In this document: positions 16,085 through 35,490 of the stretch, one piece after another
Layout: every line of letters begins with the position of its first letter
Numbering within the stretch: position 1 is the stretch's first letter
From: Methylotuvimicrobium buryatense 5G
GTDB taxonomy: Bacteria; Pseudomonadota; Gammaproteobacteria; Methylococcales; Methylomonadaceae
DNA length: 35,490 nucleotides
NCBI RefSeq assembly: GCF_000341735.1
Contig: NZ_KB455575.1
Location: forward strand, 3,094,679 to 3,130,168
Reading direction: 5' to 3'
Made by a program: the position numbers and the translations under genes
Notes under the pieces: model-generated
What the model saw: the letters and a program-made list of their open reading frames with translations, nothing else
Told to the model about the DNA's origin: nothing
The model's database searches: none

Positions 16085-16789
16085 TTATTGCTCGACCGGT
16101 TTAGCGTCTCCACTAGTCTCATCCACTCGTTGTGCATAACGCATGACCATGTCGATTTGACCCATTACCCATTTGTGGTCGCCAGTATAGTCGATCAGTA
16201 AATCGCCCTCGGTCGATTCGATTCGTTCGAAATGGATCGTTTGTCCCTGTTGATACAGGCGCGGGCCATGATCGGCCAGCGATTCAAACAAAGCTTCCAA
16301 AAGAGGCGCCCAACCGTAATCGATCCAATATTTATCCGGCAGTTCCAGAATGTCGCCAGTTCTATTATTTATATTTTGATCGACGCCATGAGGCGAACGC
16401 CAAGGCATCATGCCTTGAATCAGGCCATGTCGTTCGCATAGCGTTTTGACGCCGATGCGTTTGTGCAGCGTCCCTAAATTGCCGCAAATTTCGCAGGTTC
16501 GATACGACAGGGATTCGGCCATGACGCGAATGCCGTTGACATAATGACTTTTCTCGGGGCCGCTGAGATACACTCGAAGCCCGCCCATTTTCTGTTTAAC
16601 CTCGACGATTTCGGCTCTCAAGTCATGGGCCTCGATCAATTCAGACATCACGTCGATCAGGTGAAACCAACCATTGTCGCAGCTCAAGCCCCAACGGAGC
16701 AGGGAATTGCTTTCGTCATGTATCAGGTTGTGCCGGCGATAGAGGGTAGGATATTTGTCAAACAGGTACTGTTCTAGAAATTTGTTCAT
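16085..16789 (-). CDS. Zinc-motif protein of unknown function, partner of the AAA ATPase
   Basis: A 234-residue protein if started at the ATG at 16789 (MNKFLEQYLFDKYPTLYRR). The frame is open to 16939, but that part overlaps the AAA gene and looks non-coding. The N-terminal half (LSCDNGWFHLIDVMSELIE, then KQKMGGLRVYL) and the middle with CEICGNLGTLH...TLCERH form a likely zinc site. This layout is common in hypothetical phage and island proteins with no known role. The C-terminal third looks specific to this protein. It follows the AAA gene by 67 bp on the same strand, suggesting one transcript. Confidence 0.7.
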   Translation of the reverse strand: MNKFLEQYLFDKYPTLYRRHNLIHDESNSLLRWGLSCDNGWFHLIDVMSELIEAHDLRAEIVEVKQKMGGLRVYLSGPEKSHYVNGIRVMAESLSYRTCEICGNLGTLHKRIGVKTLCERHGLIQGMMPWRSPHGVDQNINNRTGDILELPDKYWIDYGWAPLLEALFESLADHGPRLYQQGQTIHFERIESTEGDLLIDYTGDHKWVMGQIDMVMRYAQRVDETSGDAKPVEQ

Positions 16790-16856
16790 GATCAATTTGG
16801 TATTGAGTCGTTCGGTTCTTCTTTTGCGGCTGCGAAAATGATGCTTGGAGCTTGTG

Positions 16857-18131: not shown

Positions 18132-18599
18132 AAAATCTCTCTTAAATGGTCTATTTGCTAGACATATTATCGCGACGAATAACCTCTGTAAATAGTGGCT
18201 ATAAAATTTCATCAAAACAAATTTTTGAATTCGGTTTGTGCAGTAAAGTTGACTGTGGTTTTGTTAGTTCAGCTCAAATTTTAGTTTGGGCGCCTATCGG
18301 ATGGCTATACCTTGAAAGCAGTCATTCACTGTTATTGTAAGCTTGCAATATTTGTCGATTTATTTGAAGTTTTTCTATTTCAGATGGTTCGTCTTTAGCT
18401 GACTCTATCAATGACGCTATATTTCGTTTTCCAATTCAAGCATTGATTTCTTTTTGTTGGTTGTAAATGTAATTTTTAACTCCCCATTTTCTCGGCAAAT
18501 AACTTAATTTTCATGATGTTCAAAGGTAGAACAGTCTAATGACAATACTCACTGGTGGTTGTCCGGTAGTAGGTAACTTTACGGAATCTGGTTCGACCC
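18132..18599. other. Intergenic gap upstream of the AAA gene
   Basis: AT-rich and without a convincing ORF, RNA gene or long repeat. It probably contains the promoter for the AAA/zinc gene pair on the minus strand. The piece around 18585-18600 (GGTTCGACCC) resembles a tRNA T arm, but nothing else of a tRNA is present. Confidence 0.45.
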
Positions 18600-19467: not shown

Positions 19468-19806
19468 ATGGCCAAAGTATCGGCACGCACCTATTCCCGC
19501 TATAGCCGTGAAGCGATGACGCTTCTGGGCAAGCTCATCCGCGCCGCACGAATAGAGCGTAAGATGACCGCACAAGAGGTTGCCGAACGCGCCGGTATCT
19601 CGCGCGGGCTTTTGCAGCGCATAGAAAAAGGGGATCCCAAGTGTGAACTAGGGGCAACTTTTGAAGTGGCCGCCCTAGTCGGCGTCAAACTTTTTGATAT
19701 CGAAGCGACGACGCTCAATGGGCATATTCGCCAAACCGAGGACAAGCTCGCGCTTCTCCCGAAGTCTGTGCGGAAAAAAGTAAAAGTCGTTGACGATGAC
19801 TTCTAA
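19468..19806 (+). CDS. hipB: HipB-type antitoxin, XRE-family regulator
   Basis: A 112-residue DNA-binding protein. Residues ~17-72 are an XRE/Cro helix-turn-helix (LIRAARIERKMTAQEVAERA, GISRGLLQRIEKGDP). It would bind the HipA kinase and repress the operon. It overlaps the hipA start by 11 bases, as usual for these pairs. Three related direct repeats lie upstream. The C-terminal tail (LALLPKSVRKKVKVVDDDF) is longer than the core domain and may be the toxin contact. Confidence 0.85.
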   Translation: MAKVSARTYSRYSREAMTLLGKLIRAARIERKMTAQEVAERAGISRGLLQRIEKGDPKCELGATFEVAALVGVKLFDIEATTLNGHIRQTEDKLALLPKSVRKKVKVVDDDF

Positions 19807-21061
19807 CAACGCCGATAAAGAAGCCTATGTCTGGATATGGTTGCCTGAGGCAACCGAGCCGGTCGTCGCGGGCAAGCTTGAAGCCGACGATCAGGGCAAT
19901 ATTCATTTCAACTACGGCAAAAGCTATCTGGAGCGCGTCAAGGATACGCCTCCGGCTATTCCCATCTACCTGCCGGAGCTACCGCTCAAGAAGGGAGTAT
20001 TGGCACTACCGGATGGGCTGAGCATGCCCGGCTGTATCCGTGATGCCGCTCCGGACGCATGGGGACGGCGCGTCATCATCAATAAAAAGCTTGGACGGAA
20101 AGGCAAAGATACGGATACCGATGCGCTTGGCGAACTGACCTATTTACTGGAATCGGGCTCTGATCGTATCGGCGCTCTGGATTTCCAGCGCTCGCCAAGT
20201 GAATACCTCCCCCGCTCCGCAAGAAATGTCCAGCTGGAAGAATTGCTTAAATCCGCCGAACGAGTCGAGCAAGGTATTCCGCTCACGCCGGAGCTGGATC
20301 AAGCGCTCTTCCATGGAAGCTCTATCGGTGGCGCACGCCCCAAGGCCTTGATCGAAGACCAAGGCACAAAATACATCGCAAAATTTTCATCGAGCTCCGA
20401 CCTCTACAGTGTCGTAAAGGCTGAATTCATCGCCATGCGGCTAGCGGTCGCAGCCGGGGTGAAAGCCGCCCCCGTAAAGCTTGTTCAAGCCGCAAACAAA
20501 GACATCCTTCTAATCGAACGGTTTGATCGCGAAAAAACCGCCGATGGTTGGACGCGCAAAGCCATGGTGTCCGCCTTAACGCTGTTTGGCCTTGATGACA
20601 TGATGGCCCGTTACGCAAGCTATGAAACGTTTGCAGAAATCATACGACATCGCTTCGACAACCCCAAAAAAACGCTCGAAGAGCTGTTTTCTCGTCTCGT
20701 CTTTAACATCTTGTGCGGCAATACCGATGACCACGCACGCAATCACGCGGCCTTTTGGAACGGCAAAACACTCAGCCTTACACCTGCTTACGATATTTGC
20801 CCGCAAAACCGTACCGGTAATGAAGCCTCACAAGCCATGCTCATTTCCGGGAACAACAATCTGAGCAAACTCAAGTCGTGCCTTACGGCAGCACCCCACT
20901 TTCAACTCCCGCAGGATGAAGCGAAAGCCATTTTCGATAGGCATCGCGAAGCCATTGAAGCAAATTGGAACAACGTGTGCGATGAGGCCAAGCTCAGTGA
21001 GATTGATCGAAAACTGTTTTGGAAACGGCAGTTTCTGAACCCTTCAGTGTTTGAAGAGTAA
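19796..21061 (+). CDS. hipA: HipA-type serine/threonine kinase toxin
   Basis: A 421-residue protein of the HipA family. Family knowledge: the E. coli member phosphorylates glutamyl-tRNA synthetase and induces dormancy. The N-terminal subdomain ends near GCIRDAAPDAWGRRVI; the glycine-rich loop is SIGGARPKA (~176-184); the catalytic loop is GNTDDHARNHA (~308-318) with Asp and Asn; the metal-binding motif is AYDICPQ (~331-337). All key parts are present, so the kinase is probably active. The ATG at 19796 is chosen over a TTG six bases earlier. The pair sits on the plus strand among minus-strand defence genes. Confidence 0.9.
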   Translation: MTSNNADKEAYVWIWLPEATEPVVAGKLEADDQGNIHFNYGKSYLERVKDTPPAIPIYLPELPLKKGVLALPDGLSMPGCIRDAAPDAWGRRVIINKKLGRKGKDTDTDALGELTYLLESGSDRIGALDFQRSPSEYLPRSARNVQLEELLKSAERVEQGIPLTPELDQALFHGSSIGGARPKALIEDQGTKYIAKFSSSSDLYSVVKAEFIAMRLAVAAGVKAAPVKLVQAANKDILLIERFDREKTADGWTRKAMVSALTLFGLDDMMARYASYETFAEIIRHRFDNPKKTLEELFSRLVFNILCGNTDDHARNHAAFWNGKTLSLTPAYDICPQNRTGNEASQAMLISGNNNLSKLKSCLTAAPHFQLPQDEAKAIFDRHREAIEANWNNVCDEAKLSEIDRKLFWKRQFLNPSVFEE

Positions 21062-21291: not shown

Positions 21292-21945
21292 CTACAAGTC
21301 GAGGACGATCGGTTGATGCCTGAGACAAAATCTTTCATCATGCAGGCTGGCGTTGACATAGGTCGTTTCACCTTGCTTTAACACGCCATGACATTCATGT
21401 ATGTGGCCAAAGACATGAATTTTCGGCCGGACGAGTTGAACTGCATCGGCCAATGCTTCGCAGCCGACATGTTCACCAAACACCTCATCCAAAATACCAT
21501 AGGGCGGCGTATGCGTTATCAATACGTCGGTATTACTCGGAATGCCATCCCAAATCTCGGCTAATCGAGGACCGCGCGGTAGATTGAACGCCCAATCACA
21601 AAACTCCGGCTGCCAGGGCGATCCCCAAAAGTTCACGCCATTGATTTCAATGCCTGCGTCTTCAAGATAAATGGCGTTTTTGAGCAGATTTATTGCCGCG
21701 CCCTTCCCCACTATTTCAAACGGCCAGTCATGATTTCCGGCAATCACGAGTTTGCACCGATGCGGCAGCGTACCTAACCAATCGTCGAAACGTTTGACCT
21801 CGGCTAGCCTTCCTTCTAAACAGATATCGCCGGCGACGATCAGTACATCGCCGTCCGGCACCGACACTGTTTGTTGCGCATCGTGCAGGTCTGACAGGCA
21901 AACCAGGCGTAAAGCGGGTTTATTTTGATTGTCGATCAGTGCCAT
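21292..21945 (-). CDS. Calcineurin-like metallophosphoesterase (MPPED-like)
   Basis: A 217-residue soluble phosphoesterase with all motifs of the family: SDLHD near residue 18, GDICLEG, AGNHDWP, THTPPYG and FGHIHECHG. These residues bind two metal ions. The length and spacing fit the small MPPED-like type, which hydrolyses cyclic nucleotides or phosphodiesters; the substrate cannot be read from sequence. It follows the 296-residue unknown gene by 76 bp on the same strand and may be the last gene of the DISARM-side transcript. The gap after it to hipA (convergent) is about 230 bp with no gene. Confidence 0.85.
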   Translation of the reverse strand: MALIDNQNKPALRLVCLSDLHDAQQTVSVPDGDVLIVAGDICLEGRLAEVKRFDDWLGTLPHRCKLVIAGNHDWPFEIVGKGAAINLLKNAIYLEDAGIEINGVNFWGSPWQPEFCDWAFNLPRGPRLAEIWDGIPSNTDVLITHTPPYGILDEVFGEHVGCEALADAVQLVRPKIHVFGHIHECHGVLKQGETTYVNASLHDERFCLRHQPIVLDL

Positions 21946-22021
21946 TGCCGCTCCTTATGTCTTGTTGCTAGACATATTAACCTAAAAACGATCTTCCGCA
22001 AACATTTTTGAACTGCCCTTG

Positions 22022-22912
22022 TCATTTCATGAAATCTAGCAGCAACTCGCTGACAGAAAATGCGATTGGCGCTGAATTTTGAGGTGGTTTCTGTTCGATG
22101 CGCAATTCGTTCGCCGTCGCAACCATGACGCCCCATGGATCGGGGTAGCTTTTTCGAGAACCATTGGCCGCTTTGATCAAGGTCGATTCTTGGGCGATCA
22201 GCCAAACTCTTTCATTCGAAAGGTGGTCTTCTTGTTCTCGATCAACCGCATCTTCTACCTGAATTACAATAAACGCCACATCGACGATCCGATGCTCATT
22301 GAATACGACCATGATGGCATCGTAACCATAGCTCTTTTGTCGATCGCTGAGTGGATTAAAAATCCGCAGGACCGCTCCACTTTCATAGCCCAAGCTAACA
22401 GGATCGATCGCTTCAAGACGTCGCAAAACATTGTGTTTGAATGATAATTCTTGCTTATGCAGATTCTTTTCGTCTAAAACAGGACGCTGGGTACCCCGCC
22501 CTCTGGCGGTTTGACCTTCCGGCATGGCCTCACGGTAAATCTGCCAGGTCTTGAGGAGTTGCGGCCGTTTGATTTTTTTTTGGTACAGCGCTTCAGCCAA
22601 GGCGTTGAAATCGCTCTCGGTCGCAACTCGATTGATTTTTTCCAACAATTCGAGAGAGTCTGCGTTAATGCCTTCCGGAATATCCAGCGGCGTCTTTGCG
22701 TTTGCCCATCCGCCCGTTTGCAATTCGACGGCAAAACGCCCAACCCTTAAGTAACGCCAAAGCACTGAAATCCGCACACCCTCCTTCTCGGCACGGGTCT
22801 TCAGCCAGTCGCTAAAACTCTTGGCCTTTTGTTCTCGCCAAGACTGCTTGTCCTGGGTCTCAATCAGATCTTGGGCTTCTTGACGCCAGTTGAAGTTGCG
22901 GAGCTTAGACAT
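22022..22912 (-). CDS. Unknown 296-residue protein downstream of drmC
   Basis: I do not recognise this protein. The first ~110 residues are helical and charged (WREQKAKSFSDWLKTRAEKE, VLWRYLRVGRFAVEL), like a DNA-binding or adaptor domain. The second half is predicted mixed alpha/beta (YGYDAIMVVFNEHRIVDVAF, IVIQVEDAVD) and could hold a nuclease-like fold, but no complete catalytic motif is visible. It lies 139 bp after drmC and 76 bp before the metallophosphoesterase on the same strand. The position suggests an accessory gene of the defence operon, but the gap is larger than between the core genes. Confidence 0.6.
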   Translation of the reverse strand: MSKLRNFNWRQEAQDLIETQDKQSWREQKAKSFSDWLKTRAEKEGVRISVLWRYLRVGRFAVELQTGGWANAKTPLDIPEGINADSLELLEKINRVATESDFNALAEALYQKKIKRPQLLKTWQIYREAMPEGQTARGRGTQRPVLDEKNLHKQELSFKHNVLRRLEAIDPVSLGYESGAVLRIFNPLSDRQKSYGYDAIMVVFNEHRIVDVAFIVIQVEDAVDREQEDHLSNERVWLIAQESTLIKAANGSRKSYPDPWGVMVATANELRIEQKPPQNSAPIAFSVSELLLDFMK

Positions 22913-23051: not shown

Positions 23052-23807
23052 TCAAATTAGATCAATCACTTTTAATTGGACGAGAGCATTCAAATGTCGA
23101 TTCAATAAAACCGGTATACGTCCGCCGCTGATCAAAATACCCGCTTCAATGTTTTTCTCCATCGCAAAACCGGTCAAATTGGCACTAGTGATAAAACAAA
23201 ATCGATCGTCAGCCAAAGCAATCTTGGCATGAACTCGCCCACCCAAATAATTTTCTGTTTTATTGATCCATGCGTAAATCAAGGCCTCGGGAACCAATTT
23301 GAGCATTTTGCCAATCACGTCGATGATCACACTACCTCCATGATCATTCGATGATTCCAGCAACATCGAAACCACCACGCCACGAGCAATGGCTGCATTA
23401 AGGGCATTGATAATCGATGACACATCATAGGCAACGAAACTTGTGATGAAAAGGGACTTTCTGGCCGACTCAATGACCTGCAACAATGCTTGTTCGGTAC
23501 GGCGAGCCGAAACGAATGGCGTCGATGGCCCTGTCCATACGAGCTCCAAGGATTGTTCCGTGTTCACTTTGTCTATCGTGTGAGATGCGGCGACCAACAT
23601 TGCGGCCAACTCGCTGCCAGTGACCTCACTAGCCTGCCATGTTGTTTTCAGCCTGTCGATCGCAGATGCCACTTGGTGCGTGCTTTCGAAGTCGGTCAAC
23701 GATACTGCTTTGGATTTGGCGTTTCGAATTCTATTGGCAATTGCGCCAACTTTCTCCCGAGGAACTAGGACCACTAAATTCGTGATGGCATCTAGTAATA
23801 TTTCCAT
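23052..23807 (-). CDS. drmC: DISARM DrmC, phospholipase D-fold protein
   Basis: A 251-residue protein of the PLD superfamily. The HKD motif HAKIALAD (His ~193, Lys ~195, Asp ~200) is followed by ITSANLTGFAMEKNIEAGI, with one HKD copy as in single-domain PLD nucleases that act as dimers. In DISARM, DrmC is the PLD component, with a variable requirement between systems. The ATG at 23807 is chosen because AAAGG lies eight bases upstream and it begins right after the drmB stop; a longer frame to 23840 overlaps drmB by 32 bases. Confidence 0.85.
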   Translation of the reverse strand: MEILLDAITNLVVLVPREKVGAIANRIRNAKSKAVSLTDFESTHQVASAIDRLKTTWQASEVTGSELAAMLVAASHTIDKVNTEQSLELVWTGPSTPFVSARRTEQALLQVIESARKSLFITSFVAYDVSSIINALNAAIARGVVVSMLLESSNDHGGSVIIDVIGKMLKLVPEALIYAWINKTENYLGGRVHAKIALADDRFCFITSANLTGFAMEKNIEAGILISGGRIPVLLNRHLNALVQLKVIDLI

Positions 23808-23808
23808 A

Positions 23809-25659
23809 TCAAAAACCTTTGAAGAAGCCAGCTTCGGCATGTTCGAAGGTCGGGATCAACAGTGACCTGTCCAAATATCGATTACCGCGTTCACACGAAG
23901 TCTCGGCCACGAAAGAGCAGGCATGGCAAGCCGCGGCATGCAGGGTTCTGTCTTTGGCCGGATCATGCTCTGAGCACAACGGATCGGAAGAACAGACTTT
24001 GGCTCGTTCCAAAGCTTGCCTCAGCAGTCGCCCTAGATTCTCGGGTTTACCAAGCTCGACCAAACCACCCAGCGTCCCATCGGAATCGGCTGCAGCCGTG
24101 TAGATCAAAATGCCCGCTTGCGGCATGTCATCGATCATGTCGGCATAGACCCGCTCACGAATACTTGCCGCGTTGTAACCGCACTCCAAAGCCAATTCCC
24201 GGATCAGAATATGCGCAAGGGTATGCAACATCGCGTAGCGAATGCCTGGGTAGTCGCCATCAGGACTCAAATGCCTGGCATTACGCCACCCTCGGTGACC
24301 ACCCAATAATATTTGATCGATGCCGGCAACGGCTTTCTTGCCTTCCCATTCCTTCAATGCCGATTCGTTGAATTGGATGAAGATTCCCTCACCATGAACC
24401 TCGCAAGCAGGCACCCATTCTGGATTAGATCGAGAAAGCGGTGCCATAGACGAATGTTCCTGTCCAATCGATTCATCAGGGGATTCGACGCGAGTGAAAC
24501 CAATCAGTGCATTGACTTCGCGCAAACGTTCCAACAGTAACACTCGACTGATTCTATCCTTGAATCCTTCCGGCACGTCAGTCGGCGTACTCATGAAATG
24601 TGGATAATCGGTAGGTGGATTGGGTGACGACAAGACTTCCCATTCTGGTCCTTTGATGTCTGCTTGTTCGACGACCTGATCGGTACCGTCACGGTGGTGT
24701 TGAATGGCAACCCATACCGTTTCGACTTCATATTTCTCTATGCCTTGCGCCTCGCCACGTTTCTTCAATGCCTTGATCGTACCTTTCAACTCCGACAGGT
24801 CTTCCGTATCGGCAAAGTCTTCCCAATAATCGGTGATGATTTGCTGCAAAGGTGAACCATTCTGCTGAGGAATCGCCAATGCCGACAAGGTCATGGGGAA
24901 CCAGCTGTTGGTGGCACCCAACAAGACTGCTCGAGGAGCTTCCGTGCAGTCATGATCGAACCAATCCAAATGCGGATGTCGTCCACGACAGCCAGGTAAA
25001 TTTTCTCTGCCGGCTTGTCCAAAGGCATGAGCCATGCTTCGAGATGCCGAACAAGTATCGCACTTGACCCAAAGATTTTCGGTTTGTAGTGATGCACCGC
25101 TTTCGAAAAATCGCAGTGTGCCTTTGCATTCGCTGGGACCACCATGCACGAAGTAATGCCAGGGGAAGTCGTCCAAGTGACCGCCGCGACAAGCCAACAG
25201 GAAACGCGCCGGTACAGCATCGGCGTCTTTGGCCTTGTCACTGCCTTTCGAACCAGTGCATCCCTTATGTACGAATTTCGTCAACTCAGGTCGATAGCGA
25301 TTTTCCTTGAGGCCGAACAGGCCGAGATCGTAAGGCGAGAGCAAGCCGCACTTCACGCAACGCAACCATCGTGGAAAAGGACGTACTGGAACTCCGATGT
25401 TGGCCTCGGCCGACCACACGTCGGCGAGTTCACTTTTCGAAAAGGGCGGCATGCGCAGACTCTCGACCTGGTCGCCCAACACCTGCCGTACGGCATTCAA
25501 TAAGCGAGCTTCATGGATGGGCTGACATCTGTCTCGCTCCCAACGGTCGATACCGGACGTTACGACCGATAGATTCGGTAAATCGATCAGGGCACCTGGA
25601 CCATAGGTCCACAACAATTGGCTCGGTCGCACCTCACCAACGGGAGTTTTTTCGCTCAT
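23809..25659 (-). CDS. drmB: DISARM DrmB (DUF1998 protein)
   Basis: A 616-residue protein at the usual DrmB length. It starts with the typical GEVRPSQLLWTYGPGALID. Cys pairs CVKC (101-104) and CDTC (200-203), and HLDDFPW (161-167), point to zinc-binding structure. The DUF1998 region lies at YAMLHTLAHILIRELALEC and near ILIYTAAADSDGTLGGL. A final Cys-rich cluster (CSSDPLCSEHD, CHACSFVAETSCERGN) ends the protein. DrmB forms the DrmAB complex with the DrmA helicase. Its ATG overlaps the drmA stop (ATGA), so the two are translationally coupled. Confidence 0.9.
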   Translation of the reverse strand: MSEKTPVGEVRPSQLLWTYGPGALIDLPNLSVVTSGIDRWERDRCQPIHEARLLNAVRQVLGDQVESLRMPPFSKSELADVWSAEANIGVPVRPFPRWLRCVKCGLLSPYDLGLFGLKENRYRPELTKFVHKGCTGSKGSDKAKDADAVPARFLLACRGGHLDDFPWHYFVHGGPSECKGTLRFFESGASLQTENLWVKCDTCSASRSMAHAFGQAGRENLPGCRGRHPHLDWFDHDCTEAPRAVLLGATNSWFPMTLSALAIPQQNGSPLQQIITDYWEDFADTEDLSELKGTIKALKKRGEAQGIEKYEVETVWVAIQHHRDGTDQVVEQADIKGPEWEVLSSPNPPTDYPHFMSTPTDVPEGFKDRISRVLLLERLREVNALIGFTRVESPDESIGQEHSSMAPLSRSNPEWVPACEVHGEGIFIQFNESALKEWEGKKAVAGIDQILLGGHRGWRNARHLSPDGDYPGIRYAMLHTLAHILIRELALECGYNAASIRERVYADMIDDMPQAGILIYTAAADSDGTLGGLVELGKPENLGRLLRQALERAKVCSSDPLCSEHDPAKDRTLHAAACHACSFVAETSCERGNRYLDRSLLIPTFEHAEAGFFKGF

Positions 25660-28600
25660 CCTTCATCCTCTTCATCTCGTTCCGTAACAGTCGAACGTGG
25701 TCTCCACTCGTACTCGTCTTCCAAGCGAGACGTGTTCATGATCAACCGCACGCCTGGCTCGACTTCCCGCATCGACATTGGCACCGTCCAATTATCCCAG
25801 GCACGAAGACCGGGCGATTTGATCAAGGCCACCGTCGTATCTTTTTGTTGACCACGCTTCTCATAAGCCAAGGTTCGGCCACCCAAACTAGCTTCCTTGG
25901 CCCAATCGTCAGCCCTTGCCTTCAAGCCATCGATCGCGAGCTGTTTCTTGGTGTTGTCCTCGACGTTACCGGCGCGAGCGGCCAATACTTCGATGACCTT
26001 GGTGACCTCAGACTGATTGGCCTGCTCCAAATGACCAGCCCCTACATTGGGACTGAAGGCTTCATGACTCAAACGCATGACACTGAGCATGGCTCCGGTT
26101 AGTCCACGATCCATGGCTCGTGGCGAAAATGGTGTGACCGATTGTGCTTCGACGTGCTTGTAGAATGTCGCGTGATAATGCTCGAAGGTCTCGTAGTGTG
26201 AGAGGTCTCTAGGACGAGCCCAGGTCAGAACAGTACAGACCAGGCCCGGCGATGCCCGTCCGACGCGGCTGGTAGCCTGAATGTACTCTGCCGTACCTTT
26301 TGGCTGACCATTGACGGCCATCAACCCCAATCGATTGACGTCGACTCCGACCGACAGCATATTGGTGGCCAATACCACGTCGATGGCTCTGACGTCACCG
26401 TCTTGCCAACGACAGACGTACTTACCCTTTTCCGCATCATATTCGGTGTTGAATTTGACTTCCAACTGATCAAGATACTTGGGAATGTCCTGGCTGGAAA
26501 CACGCGAGGTCAATTCCCGGATGTTGTTGACGCCACGTTGCCCCAATCCTGGCCGTTTTACCAGACTCATCTGAACACGATAGGATCGAGTCTGCACGTC
26601 GTCCTCGGCCAAACGTTTCATACCACCTAGCTCACGTAAGGAATTGAAATAACCGACCATGGTCATGTAAGGATCGGCAGCCGAACCAAATCGTTCGAAC
26701 AATGTCTGACCAGCCGTCAAGAATGCGGTATAGACGCGTATCAACATGGCCGGTCGAGAACTGCCCGGCGAGCAAACGCCCAAATAGCGGCGTCCCGGAC
26801 GGTCTTGGATTGGACGTTGTATCGAGAAAAAATTGTCCTCCACATCCAAACCATGAGGCGGAAACACGGCAACCTGTCGCATGAACACGTTGTTGACTTG
26901 TTCTCGTGCCTTGCGCACCGTCGCCGTCGACGCAATGATCTTGGGTCGAACGGTCAAACCATCCAATTGCCAGGCGCTCAATTCGTCGACTGCCGTTTCG
27001 TATAAGCCGACCATGGTCCCTAGTGGGCCGCTGATCAAATGAAACTCGTCCTGAATGATCAGATCCGGTGGACGTATGGGCGAAATCGTTTTGACTTTTA
27101 CCGCAGGCAGGCTTTTTTTGGCCTGGTGAGAGCCATGACAATCCGCATCGGGTAACACCAGGCCATGTCTCGGGCATTCCCGATCGGCACGACCAAAAAG
27201 AGTTCGCACTTCGCCACGCCAAGCCATCATCGCGAATTTGTCGACCGTACTGATCATCATCGTCGGTGGGCGATGATAGATTTCTTCGTCGACGACCAGT
27301 ACCGGAATACCAGGATGGGTTCGTTTACTGGATTTTCCTTTGGAGAATTCGCATTGACCTTTCTTGTCGCCACAGTAGATCACGGTCCGCAATGTATCCC
27401 GATCCACTTCGATGTCACGACCGGGTGCGATTTCCGATCCGCACCAGGGGCAACTGGTCAACTGCGCCGGCGACGCTAGTCCAGTCGTATTTTGACCAGG
27501 GTTTCGTCTCGCCTCGATGGCACGATGGCTGTCCTGGGTGGTGCCTGGCGTAACCTTGTTGCCAACCCATAGACCAATGGTAAAGGGTTCCTTGCCCAAC
27601 GATTCGTCACCCTTGTCCAACGCTTCCCGCCGTAATACGTCCATCGCACAAATCAGCGTCGTGGCACGTTGGAATTGCTGCAAAGTCAACAAACGCAAGG
27701 TATAACGCATGATCACAGCCAAACCGCGCGAACTATCATAACCACCCAAATTGGGTTGCATGCGGCGTATGGCCATGGTGAAAGCAGCCACTCCCAAATA
27801 GGCCTCGGTCTTACCGCCACCGGTCGGAAACCACAGCAAGTCGGCGTAGGCTTCGACGGGACGGGTTCGACCCTGATGCTTGGGGTCGGTCAGTGACGGT
27901 ATGGACAACAACAAGAAGGCGAGCTGAAATGGCCGCCAACTTCGATTCCCAGATATGTCGGTACTTGCCAAGGAAAGGTCTTCCTTACGCCGCATGGCCA
28001 GGGAATAAATACTCCGCACCCTTTGCGTCGCCATCGCCCGATTGGCAAACCGAAACGCAGCCAACGCCTTGTCATTGGTTTCCAAAGTGTCGATACCCTG
28101 TCTAAGGCGAACCAACACCTCGTGGCACCGATCCAATGTTTGATGGGCTTGATGGTCATGCCCGATTACATCCTGACCGATACGGACACGCTGTTCGTGA
28201 ATCCATTCAGCATAATCGTCGGTCAACACACGCAAAGCGAGCGACAATTCCGATTTTTCGAGGGTGGCCAGAGTGTGCATGTCCAGCCAACCGTTTTCCA
28301 GCATTTTTCGCATTGCTGAACGATCGGCGGGATCTTCTCCTGGTGTTTCCGTCACTGCTACCTCGTATTGGGGCATGATCACGGTGCGAATCTCGGTGGC
28401 CAGCGTCACGTCGTCACTCAGATTGGCATGGACAGCGACACCATGGCCTACGCTAAATTCGACCCGATTTCGGTAGATCATTTCCAATGCCTCGCGCTCG
28501 GGATCCATGCCGTTGGCATCCAACATGGGGCGGCGACGAAAGATAGCTCGATTGGAAGACTTGGGGGCGGCACGGATGATCATTTCAGGCTGAAACAGCC

Positions 28601-29699
28601 AAGCCGAATCGCGATTGGTTTCTGGTTCCACTTGAGCATTGACCAGAAACAGTGTCACCAAACGATCGCCATTGGCATTGGGTGCGCGAATCGAGCCCTG
28701 AATCCTGACCTCCGGTTGCTCCGGGTCGGGAGCCTGATGGGCAATGGTTCCCGTGGTCAACGGTAGTATCAACTTGCCACCACAGGGTATGCGCTGCCAG
28801 ACTTTGGCTCTGACTTCTTCTTGTTCCACCCGCACGACGTTGCCGTCCGCATCACGCACCTTGCGGTTGATGACTTTTGTTTGCCCACCATCTTCGCCGG
28901 ACAAACGTTCGTAACGTCCGAAACCGACATCGACCTCTATGGCCGACGCATCGCCCGTGACGCAAAACGTGAAGCCCATGCTGGAAGGTATCAACGACTG
29001 ATTGCTGCTGGCATCGATTTCATCGGTGGAATCCGATTCGGGTTCGACACGCCCCGTCGTACCAGCAAACTCGGCGCCGGGTTCGTGTTGGCCGGGTAGC
29101 GATGTATCTACAGACTCTTCCTCGTCTTCATCGACGAGTGATCCTTCCCAGTTTTCAGTGTCAGTCGGCGCTTGTCTGGGGGCCAATTTGCCGACCAGAT
29201 AACGATCACGAACACTCATGTCGACGATTTTTTCATGTGGTCCATCTGCCGGTCCCAGAAGATCGTCCATTACCGCCAGTTGCAGTAATTCCCGGATATA
29301 AGCGCGTTCCCGAGCGCCTTCACCGCTGCCGATGACAGGGATGTCTTCCAGACGGGTTTTCAAGACATTCGTCATTCCTTCGATGAAATCGGTCCATTGC
29401 AAACGTCCTACCGTGCCCGACCCAGGTAAGGAAAAGGACGTATCGGTCAACGGTATCTTTTCATCTAGTACCAACGATCTATCGAAATACAAGGTCGTGG
29501 TCTCGAGGTCGGAACGAATCCGCATGATCCTGGCTACTTTCGTGATGACCTGCGAATCGTCGACGATCAACAGCCAATCGTCTTCATAGATGGATCGATA
29601 CAGGGATCGTTCGCCATCAAGAAGTAGAACGTAGGGTGCCAAGATCGGGTCGACGGCAAGTCCTTTGTCTACTGCGATCCACGCGTTTATTTCAGTCAT
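25656..29699 (-). CDS. drmA: DISARM DrmA, superfamily 2 helicase
   Basis: A 1347-residue helicase, near the family's usual length. The first ~600 residues are the DrmA-specific N-terminal region. Walker A FPTGGGKT lies at 624-631, a zinc-like cluster (CPWC ~750, CGDKKGQC ~776) follows, motif II is DEFH (884-887), motif III is STAT (924-927), motif V is ATNMLSVGVD (~1111), and motif VI is QATSRVGR (1141-1148). In class 1 DISARM, DrmA and DrmB load at 5'-overhang DNA and are needed for phage restriction. It begins 61 bp after the RT-nitrilase gene and overlaps drmB by four bases. All motifs look intact. Confidence 0.92.
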   Translation of the reverse strand: MTEINAWIAVDKGLAVDPILAPYVLLLDGERSLYRSIYEDDWLLIVDDSQVITKVARIMRIRSDLETTTLYFDRSLVLDEKIPLTDTSFSLPGSGTVGRLQWTDFIEGMTNVLKTRLEDIPVIGSGEGARERAYIRELLQLAVMDDLLGPADGPHEKIVDMSVRDRYLVGKLAPRQAPTDTENWEGSLVDEDEEESVDTSLPGQHEPGAEFAGTTGRVEPESDSTDEIDASSNQSLIPSSMGFTFCVTGDASAIEVDVGFGRYERLSGEDGGQTKVINRKVRDADGNVVRVEQEEVRAKVWQRIPCGGKLILPLTTGTIAHQAPDPEQPEVRIQGSIRAPNANGDRLVTLFLVNAQVEPETNRDSAWLFQPEMIIRAAPKSSNRAIFRRRPMLDANGMDPEREALEMIYRNRVEFSVGHGVAVHANLSDDVTLATEIRTVIMPQYEVAVTETPGEDPADRSAMRKMLENGWLDMHTLATLEKSELSLALRVLTDDYAEWIHEQRVRIGQDVIGHDHQAHQTLDRCHEVLVRLRQGIDTLETNDKALAAFRFANRAMATQRVRSIYSLAMRRKEDLSLASTDISGNRSWRPFQLAFLLLSIPSLTDPKHQGRTRPVEAYADLLWFPTGGGKTEAYLGVAAFTMAIRRMQPNLGGYDSSRGLAVIMRYTLRLLTLQQFQRATTLICAMDVLRREALDKGDESLGKEPFTIGLWVGNKVTPGTTQDSHRAIEARRNPGQNTTGLASPAQLTSCPWCGSEIAPGRDIEVDRDTLRTVIYCGDKKGQCEFSKGKSSKRTHPGIPVLVVDEEIYHRPPTMMISTVDKFAMMAWRGEVRTLFGRADRECPRHGLVLPDADCHGSHQAKKSLPAVKVKTISPIRPPDLIIQDEFHLISGPLGTMVGLYETAVDELSAWQLDGLTVRPKIIASTATVRKAREQVNNVFMRQVAVFPPHGLDVEDNFFSIQRPIQDRPGRRYLGVCSPGSSRPAMLIRVYTAFLTAGQTLFERFGSAADPYMTMVGYFNSLRELGGMKRLAEDDVQTRSYRVQMSLVKRPGLGQRGVNNIRELTSRVSSQDIPKYLDQLEVKFNTEYDAEKGKYVCRWQDGDVRAIDVVLATNMLSVGVDVNRLGLMAVNGQPKGTAEYIQATSRVGRASPGLVCTVLTWARPRDLSHYETFEHYHATFYKHVEAQSVTPFSPRAMDRGLTGAMLSVMRLSHEAFSPNVGAGHLEQANQSEVTKVIEVLAARAGNVEDNTKKQLAIDGLKARADDWAKEASLGGRTLAYEKRGQQKDTTVALIKSPGLRAWDNWTVPMSMREVEPGVRLIMNTSRLEDEYEWRPRSTVTERDEEDEG

Positions 29700-29760
29700 T
29701 CAATTTTTCCATTTAAAGTCGTGATTTTTGAAGAAGTGCATCCAATATGGTCCGAGTCAT

Positions 29761-32700
29761 TCACTTAGGCGTAGTACGTCTCGCCGGAGACAAATCGAAT
29801 CCTTCCGGCACTGGTTTATAAGGGTCATCTTCACATGGCCAGCGTTTCTCACGGCTTTGAAACGCTCTCAAGTTCTCAATGTCGAGCTCGACGACGACTA
29901 GATGCTCGTTTTTGCCACCTCGCAATCGGCACAGATCTCTTTCATGATGAACTTTGGCTGGAACTCGAACCCTGCTATCGCCATACTTCCTGTTATTTAC
30001 CAACGCAATGTGAGCATGAACATCCAAGCTGGCAGATTCGACGAGTGCCGAAAACGTTTCCAAATCCTGATTCCAAGAAAGAACCATCATGCAATCGACA
30101 TAACCCTGAAAATATTTGCGATAAGAAATGTTTTGCAGCTCCGAGCAAACCAACACCCCGAAATGAAAGCCAGCGTGGTCGTATATCGGTTTTGGTCGAT
30201 AGCGGAGTCCCTCGGTCCATTTTCGACCAAATAGCTTCAACAACATTTGATCTTCTCCGGGTGCAGGCAAGCATTTGGGCTGACGTATCTGTACCGAAGT
30301 GGGAAAGCCCAATCGATCATCCATCAAAACCAAAACGGCCTCGCTATGAATCGAGTCCAAAGCCCCGATTTGATAGTCCAGTCCTGCAATCAGACTGATG
30401 TTCGCGTCTCGTAGCATCCCCGAAACGGTATCTATCCATCTTTCGGGTAGAGAAAGCTCTGGAAGTAACAAATGGGTAGGCTTTGGATAGGCAGAAATGG
30501 TCGCATTGACGATTCTTTCGATGCGGGCATATCTCTGAGGAGAAATGTCAGGGCGTCCCTTGGCTGCGGCGATATAGCTGTCGTCATTGGTCAATAAGCT
30601 ACTGATACCCAATTTGATGAGGGGCTTACTTTTCGTCCCGAGCTTCGCAAACCTTTTTTCCTGATTGGTATTTTCACTTTCAGAAATGGTGGGTGGATGG
30701 ACATCGAATCCGAGTAGATTGCCCCATACCCATATACCACGCATGGCTCGGGTATATTTGGCCCAAGCCTTGGCTGGGTTTTGGACACCGTCGCCAAAGA
30801 TAGTTTGTTCAGGAAGAAACAGCGGTATCTCTTGGGTAGAATAAGGCCGAGTTGGAAACAAGTATGGTAATAAAGAGACGTCTTTCCCTGGTTTTCCTCT
30901 CCCGGAACAGCGACCGTTGACTCTATTGACCCCTGAAGCACTTGGAATGGATGATTCATCAAGGAAATCACGTAAATCATCTTCGAAATCATACAGTCCA
31001 TGTAACTGGGTTTCGTCGACAACCGACGGGCGTTGTCTCGTCGCGTCTCGGCGTAAGTGATCTTTATAGGCCGTTTTTGCCCAATCCGCTTCTCTCAACG
31101 AAATCGACAACCTTTCGATTTGTTTAGTATCAGTACCCAAGCCAACTTTTTCACATACGGATAGCGCTGTTTCCGAAAGAGGTCTGATTCCTCCTTTTCG
31201 TTGGCTCCATCGCAGTGACCGAGTCAAGGCATCGGCACTCAGTTTTCGTACGGCATCCTCTAAACCTTCCCATATTTGTTCGATATTTCCGGAGGCCTTA
31301 TGACCATTGATCTTTATTGGAACCTCTTGAGTATGCTTCCTGAGCGTTCGAAGAGACGTAAAAACGGCATCCAATAATTTCGAAGCCTCTACCCAATCCA
31401 TCAAGGCAACGGCCAAAGACAAAAGTCTTGGCAAATAATCAATGTGGTCAAGGATCTTATCTGGGCGCAGAATGTGACTATGAGCGAACTCATAGAATTT
31501 GATGCGTTCGTCTTTCCAATCGTCGGATCGCAAATCTCTAGCAAACATTTCCACGGCACGAAGTTGGATGGACCAACCCAAGCGACGAACCGACAAACCA
31601 TCGGCACGACGCAATGTATCGGCTTCTTCGGATGGATGCGCGGCGGCCGTCAATATCTTGGCAGAAGACATGGATTCCAATCCTTTCAAAGATGGCATCA
31701 ATCGTCGCTCGCTGGATACACTACGAATCTGTGTTTCGATGTTGTCGAGTAAATCCAGTCCCGCTTGCCCTTGTAAGAAAAAGGCTTTTTGTTTGTTCTT
31801 CTGTAACGTTAGTTTCGTTGCGCCTTGAAAACCGCCAGGCAGTTTCAGCTCGATTTCTTCCGTATTACTGGCATCTTCCGGAAAACACTCGGTTCGTTTT
31901 GAAATGAAGTCCAAAAGAGCACTGGTACTTCTAAGATGGCCTGGGTCACGAAGTACCAAAAAAATATCATCGACGTATCGTCCGTAGTAAATGGGGGTCA
32001 ATCCCTGTTCTATATCGCGATCCAATGAGATCAACAATGCATTCGAAACGATCCGGGATATGGACAATCCTATTGGTAAGCCACCAATTTCGATGTCTTC
32101 AGATGAACACCCCATTTCGATGAGTTTTTGAGCCGTAAGTTTTGACCAGCCAATAAGGGCTTTGACGAATGCCTTGGTAAAGTCCAATTCCCAAGCATCG
32201 AGTTCGATGCCTGCCGATGCTAGAAAACGCTTCTTGCTGATGAAAGAAGGATCGATTTGATGATAGTAACTGGTGAAATCCATTGAGATGGCCACGACCG
32301 ATCGATCTCCTTCCAATTCCTCACGGATCGCATTCATTCCTCGTTCGCGCCACTTTCTATACAACCCGAAATACGGCATGAATGAGCCGATAGTCTCCAG
32401 GTGATAACGGCCTACATTGGTTTCAATTTCTTTGGGATCAGGTCGGTAACGGCGAAGTCTCGCACCATACGTGGATTTGGACAAAACAGTGTCATATTTG
32501 TGACCGATCAGATTGATCCAAAGCGCCGACATCACATGCATTTCGACCGGGAATTCGCCAACGAGCCTGAATTCTGGTGTGATTTCTTTGGCATTGCGAA
32601 GAAACTCAAAAGCCCTCGTCGAATCAGAAAAAAAGCAGTGTCCGCCCAATTCCGCCTTCTTATCTTCCCTGCCTTCCTTGTCTTTTTTGGGTTCGATTCC

Positions 32701-32943
32701 CAGTTTTTTGGCGGTAACACCAGGTGTCCCGATGTTTTCGATCAAAATGCTTTTGGCTTTCCCTGCGTGCAAGCGATCTAACAACTTGGACAAGTTTTCA
32801 GGCAGGTTGGACTCGTATTCGGCAAATTGACTGGCAATACAAATGGATCGTTCGAAATAGCAATCAGCCTTGGCTTTTCGATAGGCATAGAACAGGTCTT
32901 TCAATTCGATATCTAACCACGATTCCCGCATTTTCATTTCCAT
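29761..32943 (-). CDS. Reverse transcriptase-nitrilase fusion (DRT1/UG1-like)
   Basis: A 1060-residue protein. The RT core is complete: motif A AISMDFTSYYHQID (Asp222), motif B GGLPIGLS (287-294), motif C YVDD (323-326) and a motif D-like LTLQKNKQKAF. A helical middle part (~450-780) follows. The C-terminal domain resembles the nitrilase superfamily with the triad Glu829 (LLLPELSLP), Lys890 (QPKCLPAP) and Cys933 (GVLVCSELQ). This architecture is that of defence-associated RTs of the UG1 (DRT1) or related nitrilase groups. It sits inside the DISARM operon, 15 bp after the drmMI stop and 61 bp before drmA. The start may be the first, third or fifth codon (three Met), with GGAA before the last. 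Confidence 0.88.
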   Translation of the reverse strand: MEMKMRESWLDIELKDLFYAYRKAKADCYFERSICIASQFAEYESNLPENLSKLLDRLHAGKAKSILIENIGTPGVTAKKLGIEPKKDKEGREDKKAELGGHCFFSDSTRAFEFLRNAKEITPEFRLVGEFPVEMHVMSALWINLIGHKYDTVLSKSTYGARLRRYRPDPKEIETNVGRYHLETIGSFMPYFGLYRKWRERGMNAIREELEGDRSVVAISMDFTSYYHQIDPSFISKKRFLASAGIELDAWELDFTKAFVKALIGWSKLTAQKLIEMGCSSEDIEIGGLPIGLSISRIVSNALLISLDRDIEQGLTPIYYGRYVDDIFLVLRDPGHLRSTSALLDFISKRTECFPEDASNTEEIELKLPGGFQGATKLTLQKNKQKAFFLQGQAGLDLLDNIETQIRSVSSERRLMPSLKGLESMSSAKILTAAAHPSEEADTLRRADGLSVRRLGWSIQLRAVEMFARDLRSDDWKDERIKFYEFAHSHILRPDKILDHIDYLPRLLSLAVALMDWVEASKLLDAVFTSLRTLRKHTQEVPIKINGHKASGNIEQIWEGLEDAVRKLSADALTRSLRWSQRKGGIRPLSETALSVCEKVGLGTDTKQIERLSISLREADWAKTAYKDHLRRDATRQRPSVVDETQLHGLYDFEDDLRDFLDESSIPSASGVNRVNGRCSGRGKPGKDVSLLPYLFPTRPYSTQEIPLFLPEQTIFGDGVQNPAKAWAKYTRAMRGIWVWGNLLGFDVHPPTISESENTNQEKRFAKLGTKSKPLIKLGISSLLTNDDSYIAAAKGRPDISPQRYARIERIVNATISAYPKPTHLLLPELSLPERWIDTVSGMLRDANISLIAGLDYQIGALDSIHSEAVLVLMDDRLGFPTSVQIRQPKCLPAPGEDQMLLKLFGRKWTEGLRYRPKPIYDHAGFHFGVLVCSELQNISYRKYFQGYVDCMMVLSWNQDLETFSALVESASLDVHAHIALVNNRKYGDSRVRVPAKVHHERDLCRLRGGKNEHLVVVELDIENLRAFQSREKRWPCEDDPYKPVPEGFDLSPARRTTPK

Positions 32944-32958
32944 GGGCGTCTATCCATA

Positions 32959-34466
32959 TCAGGGTTTGGCTCTATAACGAATGGCATCAGACTCACCTTG
33001 AGATTCGACGTATTCGTCTTTCAATAGCTCATCGATCGCAAAAGCCCACTCATTAGGATCGGCGCCACAACCATTCAGAATGGCTGATTTGTTGAACCAG
33101 CCTTTGTGGGCTTCGAGCCAGGCAAGCATTTGATCTGAAGCGATTTTCCCCCATTGATTGCCCACTTTGACAGAGGTTGGTTCTAGAATTTGATTGTCGT
33201 TTTGATCCTCAAAGACTAGTTCTGTTTGATAAAAAGACTTACTTGTTGAAGGATGTTTGGCACGAGCAGTAATTTTTTTATCTTTTAATTGTGATCCATT
33301 CGTTGATTCAAGTTCATTCTGAAGTTTGTTTAAATTTAGCAACCTCGTTATGATTAATGATCTATTTTCTTCGGAAATAGTGAAACGTATTCCTTGTTTA
33401 GTTAAGTTGAAATTATGATTTATTTCAGTTACTGGAATTGAATACATTTCGCAAACAGCTAAATCAAGCTGTATATGCATTTCTCGCATTTTTTCTATTG
33501 CAGGTATATTGCAATTAGGATTATGAAAGCTCTGATAAATTGATGTGAGCCCGTTATCTAGCTCCTTCATGGTAGAAATTCTAAACTGATGGTAATCTTT
33601 AGAAATTTTTAATACTTTATCTGAGTTTTTTTCAAAAATTAATGGAAATGTTTCGAAGCATGTTGAAGGTATATAACGAATATCTGTTTTCATTCGAGTA
33701 GCAAAATTAGCTGCATACTCTTCATGGATTGTAGAGTTTAAGACACCCCAGCTACAATAATCATCCAATAAAACCACCACAACTGCGTTTGTATATAACC
33801 AATCTATTGAACCAAATTCAAACCATGACATGTTCGATGTATATGGCCTTATAAGCACTCGTGAAAGATTTTTCATGCCGTCATAAAGTTTTACTCGAGG
33901 CCTATGAAATTGCCACCAATTCTTTCTTCTTGGACGTTTTGCATCTGGCTGAGAAAAACGCTCTTTTAATATTTCTGTGGCCGTATGAAATTCTGACTCT
34001 GCTCTTGCTAGGGGCAGATCGGATAGAAAAATCACCCAGCGTTCAGGTTTAATTATTGAAGTAGACGTCAATTCTTTTCCACCAAGTATAGGCTTGAAAA
34101 CCACGGAATATTTTTCTTCTTCTTTAATACAGGAGCGAGCTGTCTCTTTGGATATAAAGAAATCACCAAGCAATTCCGATCCTTTGTAACAAATGGACTG
34201 GTTCTTTAAAAGTGGTTTTGGCTCAGAATTGACATCATCCAATAATCGAGGAGATATGTTTCCAACCAAAATATTATTGATATATAAGCAGCCATTCCAA
34301 TCGCCTTTAATTAAAAAAGCTACCGAAACATAAACCGAAGCAGTGCCAGGCCACTTTATATCTGTCAGAGCCGAATAAATCTTACCTGAGTCCTCTGTAA
34401 TCGGAATTAGAGATGCTTTGAGGTTTTCGCCTTCTGATATGCTATTTGTTACTAATAAGCCAATAC
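32959..34466 (-). pseudogene. drmMI: 3' part of DISARM methyltransferase drmMI, cut by IS66
   Basis: About 500 codons of the C-terminal half of a class I SAM-dependent DNA adenine methyltransferase (DrmMI/PglX/MmeI-like). The upstream end reads IGLLVTNSISEGENL, then SALTDIKWPGTASVYVSVAF, as in the post-catalytic region. The recognition part follows (NWWQFHRPRVKLYDGMKNLSRVLI, STIHEEYAANFATR, RYIPSTCFETFPL). A C-terminal winged-helix-like end includes GWFNKSAILNGCGADPNEW. The frame stays open from 32959 to the IS66 border; the TTG at 34269 is only the first start-like codon. The SAM-binding motif and NPPF/Y motif are missing. The stretch from ~33200 is clearly more AT-rich than its neighbours. 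Confidence 0.85.
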
Positions 34467-35490
34467 GTAATCGTTTAGCCCCCCCCTGTTCCTATCACGC
34501 CAAAACCGGCATAGGCAAACGAGGGACGGGTTGGTTTTTACGGCGTTCGGCCAGTGTTTGAGCAATAAACTCCCAAGGATTCAGGTCTCTCAAACGCGCG
34601 GTATCAATCACGCTCGCCAGCAAGGCAACCACGCGACTGCCTTGTGCCGTCCGCGAACCGAAGGTGATTTTGCGCAGCAATACCCAGTGCCGCAAACTGC
34701 GTTCCGCCACGTTGTTGGTCAATGGATGCGCCGGCGTTTCGACCACGCGCACGATGGCCTCCCAATCGTTGAGAAATTCGCCGGCTAATTGTCGGCTGTC
34801 AACATGCGCGATGTCTCGGTGCGTCTCGCAGAGCGAGCGCAGCAAGGTCAGCAACTGTTGATTCTGCGCCCATAAGGATTCGGCATCCGGCGGCGATTCG
34901 CGGAGTCGGTGGATGTTGCGCATCAACAGGATCATGGCCAATAACAAGGCTTCGCCGAAAGCTTGTCCTTCGCTATCCAAGCACTGATACAGTGCTCGGG
35001 CCTTGCGCACCAAGTGCGCCCAACAGCGCAAGCGCCTAGGAAAGATGCGATAGACGCTGTAGCCGTCGGTCATCAGTAAGCCGCAAAACGCTTCCCCTAA
35101 GAGCTGGTTCACGACGAGACGATGGCGTTTGCCCACTTGATAAATCACCGTCTGTGCGCTGACAAAGACCCAGAGCCAAAATAACTGCCCGGCTTCTTTC
35201 CAGGGTGTTTCATCGATATGTAAGAGGCCGGCGGCCTTGAGTTCCGCGATCAACTGCTCGTCGACGACCGGCGCAACGGCACGTCCCGCTTCATGAATGC
35301 ATTGATTGATGGTGCTGGTGCTGAGGTCGATCCCCAGCCAATCGCGCAAATAGGCTTGGATTCTGCTGCGCGATGCCCGTAGGGACAATGAGAGATAAAC
35401 CAAAAAGCTAACCAACCGAGGGCCGCACAGATGCCATTCGCTCAGGGCTACGCTCCAGCCATCTTCGTCGGCGCCTCGCCCGGGCTCGGC
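34467..35490 (-). mobile_element. IS66-family insertion sequence, right part outside window
   Basis: The proposed end is at 34467, where GTAATCGTTTAGC resembles the GTAAGCG-type IS66 terminal repeat. The transposase stop lies 25 bases inside. IS66 elements make 8-bp target duplications, so GCCAATAC (34459-34466) would be repeated at the far end. The element interrupts drmMI and leaves the window at its right edge. Confidence 0.75.
34495..35490 (-). CDS. tnpC: IS66 transposase (TnpC), 5' part outside window
   Basis: A DDE transposase of the IS66 family, 332 codons visible. The frame continues past the window edge (DEDGWSVALSEWHLCGPRLV precedes the first start-like codon at 35415). The visible parts include LLHIDETPWKEAGQ (first Asp), CGLLMTDGYSVYR (second Asp) and HPLTNNVAERSLRHWVLLRK (Glu). 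No frame break is seen, so this copy may be active. The IS66 helper genes tnpA and tnpB would be upstream, outside the window. Confidence 0.9.
   Translation of the reverse strand, partial: AEPGRGADEDGWSVALSEWHLCGPRLVSFLVYLSLSLRASRSRIQAYLRDWLGIDLSTSTINQCIHEAGRAVAPVVDEQLIAELKAAGLLHIDETPWKEAGQLFWLWVFVSAQTVIYQVGKRHRLVVNQLLGEAFCGLLMTDGYSVYRIFPRRLRCWAHLVRKARALYQCLDSEGQAFGEALLLAMILLMRNIHRLRESPPDAESLWAQNQQLLTLLRSLCETHRDIAHVDSRQLAGEFLNDWEAIVRVVETPAHPLTNNVAERSLRHWVLLRKITFGSRTAQGSRVVALLASVIDTARLRDLNPWEFIAQTLAERRKNQPVPRLPMPVLA

What the first reader, a model, noticed from the sequence alone, without database searches (positions are those of the whole stretch)
23052..34466. RT-nitrilase gene embedded in a DISARM operon between drmMI and drmA
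In transcription order the minus strand reads drmMI (3' part), RT-nitrilase, drmA, drmB, drmC, with gaps of 15 bp, 61 bp, a 4-base overlap and 1 bp. Class 1 DISARM is known as drmD, drmMI, drmA, drmB, drmC; DRT1-type RT-nitrilases are known as stand-alone anti-phage genes. Here the spacing implies one transcript and so a combined system. The RT might supply or sense a nucleic acid for the DrmAB helicase, or replace the self-marking methyltransferase.
Basis: partly seen in the sequence, partly recalled or inferred. Interest (0 to 1): 0.88.

Follow-up and report, generated by a model that had tools for sequence, protein, structure and literature searches.

The report
Reverse-transcriptase module in DISARM cargo slot
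A phage-defence reverse transcriptase fused to a nitrilase sits inside a DISARM defence operon, apparently as an interchangeable backup module of a kind that also turns up inside other DNA-methylation-based defence operons.

Summary
In detail: drmMI (3' part), a UG5-type RT-nitrilase, drmA, drmB and drmC lie on one strand with gaps of 15 and 61 bp, a 4-bp overlap and 1 bp. Beyond the window lie drmD, vsr and dcm; drmMI is split by an IS66 element. A fixed RT-DISARM system is not supported: 0 of 80 RT relatives read (best 80 of 473) have drmA/B/C nearby, and 0 of 30 other DISARM loci hold this RT. But the pairing is not random. In 29 of 85 RT loci the RT shares a co-directional block with type I RM or BREX genes; 3 more have such genes outside its block; 53 show none. 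In 11 BREX loci it directly precedes the C-half of a split pglX. Reciprocally, the drmMI-drmA junction of class 1 DISARM holds extra ORFs in 18 of 29 loci, PD-T7-1, PifA and PARIS-like genes among them; drmA-drmB in 1 of 29. Relative G513's operon matches on both sides (78-84% DNA) but not in the cargo or drmMI recognition region. Best reading: a portable class 3 DRT (DRT1-like) abortive module in a DISARM cargo slot, a second layer mechanistically separable from DISARM. Whether it guards the methylase is open.

The parts
34467..35490 (-). IS66-family insertion sequence (continues to position 36142 outside the window) splitting drmMI
   Evidence: DDE_Tnp_IS66; ends, 1676 bp and 8-bp target duplication; ten long copies at 97-100% identity in the genome, this one included
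32959..34466 (-). 3' part of drmMI (MmeI-like target recognition region), separated from its 5' part by the IS66
   Evidence: ORF 32959-34269: PDLC02643 DrmMI E 6.3e-74, MmeI_TRD 7.5e-12; 5' part L009:7810-10593 is DrmMI
29722..33055 (-). variable segment: last ~97 bp of drmMI, the 15-bp gap, the RT gene and 39 bp; not alignable as DNA with relative operons
   Evidence: DNA match with G513 stops at 33056 and resumes at 29721, 22 nt before the drmA ATG; with G470 it resumes at 29716
29761..32943 (-). UG5-type RT-nitrilase, 1060 aa: RT domain with YVDD (323-326), helical middle, C-terminal nitrilase with E829, K890, C933
   Evidence: PDLC03780 E 1.6e-285; D325, D326, E829, K890, C933 in 78 of 78 aligned sequences, V324 in 76; AlphaFold2 pLDDT 86.2, pTM 0.89; nitrilase-superfamily and RT fold matches
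25656..29699 (-). drmA (class 1 DISARM helicase)
   Evidence: NF038325 1482.9 bits
23809..25659 (-). drmB (MZB/DUF1998-type)
   Evidence: NF038324 E 3e-228
23052..23807 (-). drmC (PLD nuclease)
   Evidence: NF038319 E 2.4e-73; start codon 1 bp after the drmB stop

Best explanation
The gene is a class 3 defence-associated RT (UG5-nitrilase) carried as an interchangeable cargo module in the drmMI-drmA slot of a class 1 DISARM operon. It most likely acts as a second, abortive layer expressed together with the DNA-targeting system: DISARM attacks unmodified phage DNA; [quoted passage not shown] Shown here: identity, intact catalytic residues, operon spacing, the variable slot, and the same family inside BREX and type I RM operons. 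Inferred: co-transcription, the DRT1-like mechanism, the trigger and the layered role. In this strain the DISARM half is probably impaired by the IS66 in drmMI.
For: RT and nitrilase residues conserved in 78 of 78 sequences aligned; profile match to solved DRT1 (9yfd, E 2.3e-20, best stretch in the nitrilase); confident model with nitrilase-superfamily and RT/AbiA matches. PMC13275509 (abstract, sections 5 and 10, passages) reports template-free protein-primed synthesis for DRT1, DRT5S and DRT5L and abortive infection for DRT1. Slot: 18 of 29 class 1 loci have at least one ORF between drmMI and drmA, 1 of 29 between drmA and drmB (Fisher p 2e-6). Cargo includes PD-T7-1 (7.7e-177), PifA (1.7e-101) and an AriA-like ATPase (2.2e-26). 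Boundaries against G513 and G470. RT in one block with type I RM or BREX genes in 29 of 85 loci, against 3 with such genes elsewhere in the locus. The smallest supported RT clade with the window (7 rows) mixes DISARM 1, type I RM 2, BREX 1, other 3.
Against: The RT-DISARM pairing is seen once. 53 of 85 RT loci have no type I RM or BREX marker in the stretch held; 29 of the 80 scan loci are under 20 kb, so some partners may be out of view, but many copies seem to do without one. The DISARM here is broken by IS66. No expression or phage data. The single sequence matches DRT1 only at E 7.1e-6 over residues 926-1034, and DRT1's priming serine is reported not conserved in other class 3 DRTs. Whole-length fold matches are weak (AbiA TM 0.24-0.27 by query length, rmsd about 21 A).
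Confidence: 0.62

Rival explanations
1. Guard of the modification system: the RT-nitrilase monitors the methylase or specificity protein (DrmMI, PglX, HsdM/S) and fires when a phage anti-restriction factor disables it, like PrrC guarding EcoprrI.
For: The RT follows drmMI here, lies directly before the PglX C-half in 11 BREX loci, and follows hsdS or cargo next to it in most of 13 type I RM loci. Another cargo of the DISARM slot is PARIS-like, and PARIS is reported to sense the anti-restriction protein Ocr (PMC12839542 section 35, part 1 of 2 read). PrrC is silenced by a linked type Ic enzyme and activated by T4 Stp (PMC2610378, passages).
Against: 53 of 85 loci show no such partner. The DRT1 factor found by phage escape is the Dda helicase, necessary but not sufficient. 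No contact shown.
Confidence: 0.22
2. Integral component of a new DISARM variant: the RT makes or senses DNA for the DrmAB helicase.
For: Tight spacing inside the operon.
Against: No second case: 0 of 80 RT relatives near drmA/B/C, 0 of 30 other DISARM loci with the RT. The close relative G513 (84% DrmA) has other genes in the slot, and 11 of 29 class 1 operons have none.
Confidence: 0.06
3. Accident of defence-island shuffling with no joint function: cargo is kept only because it gains a promoter and a ride.
For: Cargo differs between close relatives; slot contents include a PIN-domain pair and an ISAs1 transposase. An RT at 99% or more identity occurs in 253 of 5426 E. coli genomes; the one context of it that was read, a plasmid, has AbiE genes but no RM or BREX gene annotated within 15 kb.
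Against: Repeated placement inside operons of one functional class, at one fixed split point in pglX, with 8-9 label changes on the tree.
Confidence: 0.1

Closest known systems
DRT1 (UG1 RT-nitrilase) and class 3 UG/Abi RTs, incl. DRT5L (taken here, not verified, to be UG5 with nitrilase)
   Same: RT plus helical middle plus C-terminal nitrilase; catalytic residues; homology to the DRT1 nitrilase
   Different: UG5 subfamily; here and in 29 of 85 loci in one block with a multi-gene defence operon
Class 1 DISARM (drmD, drmMI, drmA, drmB, drmC)
   Same: all five genes in order, with vsr and dcm upstream as in the Microvirga terrae plasmid
   Different: RT between drmMI and drmA; drmMI split by IS66
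Backup effectors embedded in BREX (nucleases, Schlafen, OLD/PARIS; PMC12839542) and GmrSD in BREX (PMC12373910)
   Same: defence gene inserted in the operon of a methylation-based system
   Different: host operon here is DISARM and the effector an RT-nitrilase; 'reverse transcriptase' and 'nitrilase' do not occur in the main text of PMC12839542, nor 'reverse transcriptase' in that of PMC12373910
PrrC in the type Ic RM operon (PMC2610378, passages)
   Same: abortive effector encoded with a modification system
   Different: PrrC is an anticodon nuclease reported to be physically associated with its RM enzyme; no association was tested here

Membership tests
Class 1 DISARM | drmD, drmMI, drmA, drmB, drmC co-directional and in order | tested here: met
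Class 1 DISARM | uninterrupted adenine methyltransferase DrmMI | tested here: not met
   IS66 splits it into a 927-aa 5' ORF and a 3' part; a separate cytosine methyltransferase ORF of 352 aa (best MTase_II 1.9e-91, DrmMII 1.9e-88) is open
UG5-nitrilase / class 3 DRT | RT domain with YxDD and C-terminal nitrilase with E-K-C | tested here: met
[quoted passage not shown]
   reported for DRT1; synthesis also for DRT5S/L
DRT1 (UG1) itself | best match to the UG1 family | tested here: not met
   RT_UG5-nitrilase E 1.6e-285 against Drt1a 5.2e-23
Fixed RT-DISARM combined system | the same gene order recurs in other genomes | tested here: not met
   0 of 80 RT loci (best 80 of 473); 0 of 30 other DISARM loci
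Cargo slot in class 1 DISARM | one junction repeatedly holds different defence genes | tested here: met
   18 of 29 at drmMI-drmA, 1 of 29 at drmA-drmB, 6 of 27 at drmD-drmMI; cargo families

The most novel reading that the evidence does not exclude
UG5 RT-nitrilases are guards of self-marking defence systems. They have been recruited many times next to the DNA methylase of type I RM, BREX (at one fixed split point inside pglX) and, here, DISARM, and they abort the cell when the modification system is disabled; the drmMI-drmA junction is a general bay for such guards.
Probability: 0.2. Interest if true: 0.85.

Novelty: new variant of a known kind. Interest (0 to 1): 0.62.

Why it matters
It turns a single odd operon into two testable general statements: class 1 DISARM has a preferred bay for extra defence genes between the methylase and the helicase, and one RT family is repeatedly placed in the methylase operons of different defence systems (type I RM, BREX, here DISARM). 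If the RT guards those systems it would link the poorly understood class 3 DRTs to anti-restriction sensing; if not, it still shows how layered immunity is assembled by swapping cassettes.

Tried and rejected
RT replaces the methylase: rejected; drmMI was broken by an IS66 with many near-identical copies and the RT has no methylase match in Pfam. RT as a DISARM-specific partner: rejected on recurrence. Viral contigs: one scan with the single protein found no relative. Phage records: no match. G107-type drmA in E. coli genomes: no match. RT next to DISARM on plasmids: 5 RT records and 85 drmA records, 60 of them listed; no RT record is among those 60. Is a split pglX common without the RT? In 369 class genomes 4 had matches to one PglX model at E <= 1e-40, 3 unsplit and 1 in pieces; whether these loci hold the RT was not read. 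DrmD-like hits near the RT in L055, L081, L121 and L220 are not DISARM: no drmA/B/C there, and L220's is a PLD_Helicase match. L081 and L121 may be ARMADA-like; not followed. An RNA-family search for an ncRNA partner was not run.

Limits and dropped rows. The one genome scan kept the best 80 of 473 relatives; 29 of the 80 are under 20 kb. G828 and Pseudanabaena were left out of the drmMI-drmA count because drmMI is not upstream there; G399 was left out because its slot is not assembled. In one search a shadow ORF hid drmB in Deinococcus and Nocardioides; the deposited annotation shows drmB directly after drmA, and I counted them as empty, so the raw script count for drmA-drmB would be 3 of 29. 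ORFs from 60 aa were counted, so small ones (G428, 79 aa) may be chance. 8 of 85 RT loci (under 950 aa) were left out of the alignment and tree; the tree has 77 loci, the window and E. coli L226. RM/BREX markers were found with references taken from these same loci, checked by PADLOC for most (the second BrxL reference only by clustering with the first), so divergent systems may be missed. Mestre 2022 (UG/Abi classification) was not held, so an earlier mention of RT-RM or RT-BREX links there cannot be excluded.
Full report
What is there. The minus strand reads drmMI (3' part), RT, drmA, drmB, drmC at the stated coordinates and gaps. Family matches are strong for all five. The RT matches the PADLOC model RT_UG5-nitrilase at E 1.6e-285 and Drt1a only at 5.2e-23. 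Its YVDD and the nitrilase triad E829-K890-C933 (triad named from general knowledge of nitrilases) are intact; D222, D325, D326, K384, E829, K890 and C933 are identical in 78 of 78 aligned sequences, the window and 77 relatives. The single protein matches solved DRT1 at E 7.1e-6; a profile of five sequences matches it at E 2.3e-20, best in the nitrilase, and Drt3a and a retron RT in the RT domain. An AlphaFold2 model (mean pLDDT 86.2, pTM 0.89) matches nitrilase-superfamily amidases over about 285 columns and, with poor superposition (rmsd about 21 A), the abortive-infection polymerase AbiA over 757-786 columns. DRT1 itself did not appear among the 50 rows shown; the structure library ends in April 2026.

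Beyond the window. The same strand continues into an IS66-family element (1676 bp, matching ends, 8-bp target duplication), one of ten long copies at 97-100% identity in the genome, then the 5' part of drmMI, drmD, a vsr-like gene and a DrmMII-like cytosine methyltransferase. The DISARM is therefore class 1 with an interrupted adenine methylase; whether it still works is unknown. The relative G399 (DrmA 95%) has drmMI without this IS at that point, but the match ends 379 bp past it and the contig 76 bp later, so its slot cannot be read.

Does the pair recur? The one genome scan confirmed 473 RT relatives and kept the best 80. None of the 80 has DrmA, DrmB or DrmC in the stretch held (tblastn, E 1e-6), nor have the five further RT loci. 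In 201 genomes of the family, 8 have the RT at E <= 1e-20 and 11 a strong drmA (27 reach E 0.001, the other 16 being weak helicase matches); only the window's own genome has both. In 369 genomes of the class, 59 reach E 0.001 with the RT model but only 3 near full length, the window's included. On plasmids, 5 records have the RT and 85 drmA. So the RT-DISARM pairing is seen once.

The slot seen from DISARM. None of the 30 others holds the RT. Where drmMI and drmA are in order (29), at least one ORF lies between them in 18 (16 with co-directional ORFs, 2 with opposite-strand ORFs only) and none in 11. The drmA-drmB junction has one in 1 of 29; drmD-drmMI in 6 of 27. The cargo includes a PD-T7-1 protein (G470, E 7.7e-177), PifA (G492, 1.7e-101), an AriA-like ATPase with a DUF4435 protein (Trichormus, 2.2e-26 and, for AriB, 4.5e-6), GHKL ATPases (G513, Microvirga), a Schlafen-AlbA protein (G513) and a PIN-domain gene (Planktothrix). 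Against G513 the DNA is 84% identical over 5.3 kb of drmD (the fetched stretch begins inside it) and the drmMI 5' part to about 320 bp before the IS; the recognition region does not align as DNA (15-38% of residues identical per 40-residue block) except for an 87-bp island at 33142-33056; the cargo does not align; and the match resumes at 29721, 22 nt before the drmA start (77.7% over 6.7 kb). G470 resumes at 29716. I infer that recognition region and cargo have both been exchanged between otherwise similar operons.

How it most likely works. PMC13275509 (abstract, sections 5 and 10, passages) reports that DRT1 makes template-free, protein-primed DNA that both assembles and silences its nitrilase, that RT and nitrilase are both needed for abortive defence, that T4 escapers map to the Dda helicase, and that DRT5S and DRT5L also synthesise DNA without template. 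I take DRT5L to be UG5 with nitrilase; this was not verified. The 15-bp gap leaves no intergenic room for an ncRNA just upstream of the RT, which fits template-free synthesis, though an ncRNA elsewhere was not searched for. The likely role is a second, abortive layer expressed with a DNA-targeting system. Backup effectors inside BREX are a published idea (PMC12839542 section 35, part 1 of 2 read), as is GmrSD in BREX (PMC12373910, passages). The guard reading rests on position, on the PARIS-like co-cargo and on the PrrC precedent (PMC2610378, passages); it is untested.

What is known and new. In the held library no paper contains DISARM, reverse transcriptase and UG5 together, or DISARM, DRT1 and nitrilase. 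The titles and abstract starts listed mention no RT in DISARM; of those papers I opened only these, as passages or sections: PMC8934634 (UG5 with nitrilase at 50% in its co-occurrence table), PMC4244168, PMC13275509, PMC12839542, PMC12632851 (no hit for the terms), PMC9142583 ('additional auxiliary genes' in DISARM are mentioned), PMC12458937 (no 'reverse transcriptase' or 'nitrilase') and PMC12373910. Mestre 2022 and the original DISARM and DRT papers were not read. The finding is a new variant of known kinds rather than a new kind.

Noticed in passing
L074, L080, L084, L087, L089, L094, L097, L103, L120, L122, L123: BREX loci with PglX encoded as two ORFs split at one fixed place, the RT being the ORF directly before the C-half in all 11; possibly a distinct BREX form. 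L085 has the C-half too but the RT further downstream.
   Followed up: partly
L227 (E. coli ET896) 7001-7255: pglX in two annotated ORFs (the first frameshifted) with a 255-bp stretch resembling the 3' end of the UG5 RT at their junction, apparently what is left after the RT was lost.
   Followed up: partly
L224, L225, L192 and window 34467: Annotated transposase genes lie inside drmMI in Nostoc C057 (IS4 family) and Acidibrevibacterium (IS5 family), and three opposite-strand ORFs (not identified; no PADLOC match for the largest) lie inside drmD in G394, besides the IS66 here; drmMI/drmD seem often hit.
   Followed up: no
window 21292-22912: Two genes after drmC on the same strand: a 296-aa protein without match in Pfam, PADLOC or NCBIfam, and a metallophosphoesterase matching PADLOC candidate PDC-S10 (2.4e-86).
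   Followed up: no
window 16085-18215: An AAA ATPase gene (452 aa) and a partner without Pfam match (284 aa) on the minus strand, near a HipA-like gene (19790-21061); possible further defence or toxin-antitoxin genes.
   Followed up: no
L121, L081: RT near DrmD-like and DrmMI-like genes without drmA/B/C; in L121 the gene just before the RT matches LmuB (9.3e-21) and McrB/McrC-like genes (my reading, not scanned) follow. May be ARMADA-type or other systems.
   Followed up: partly
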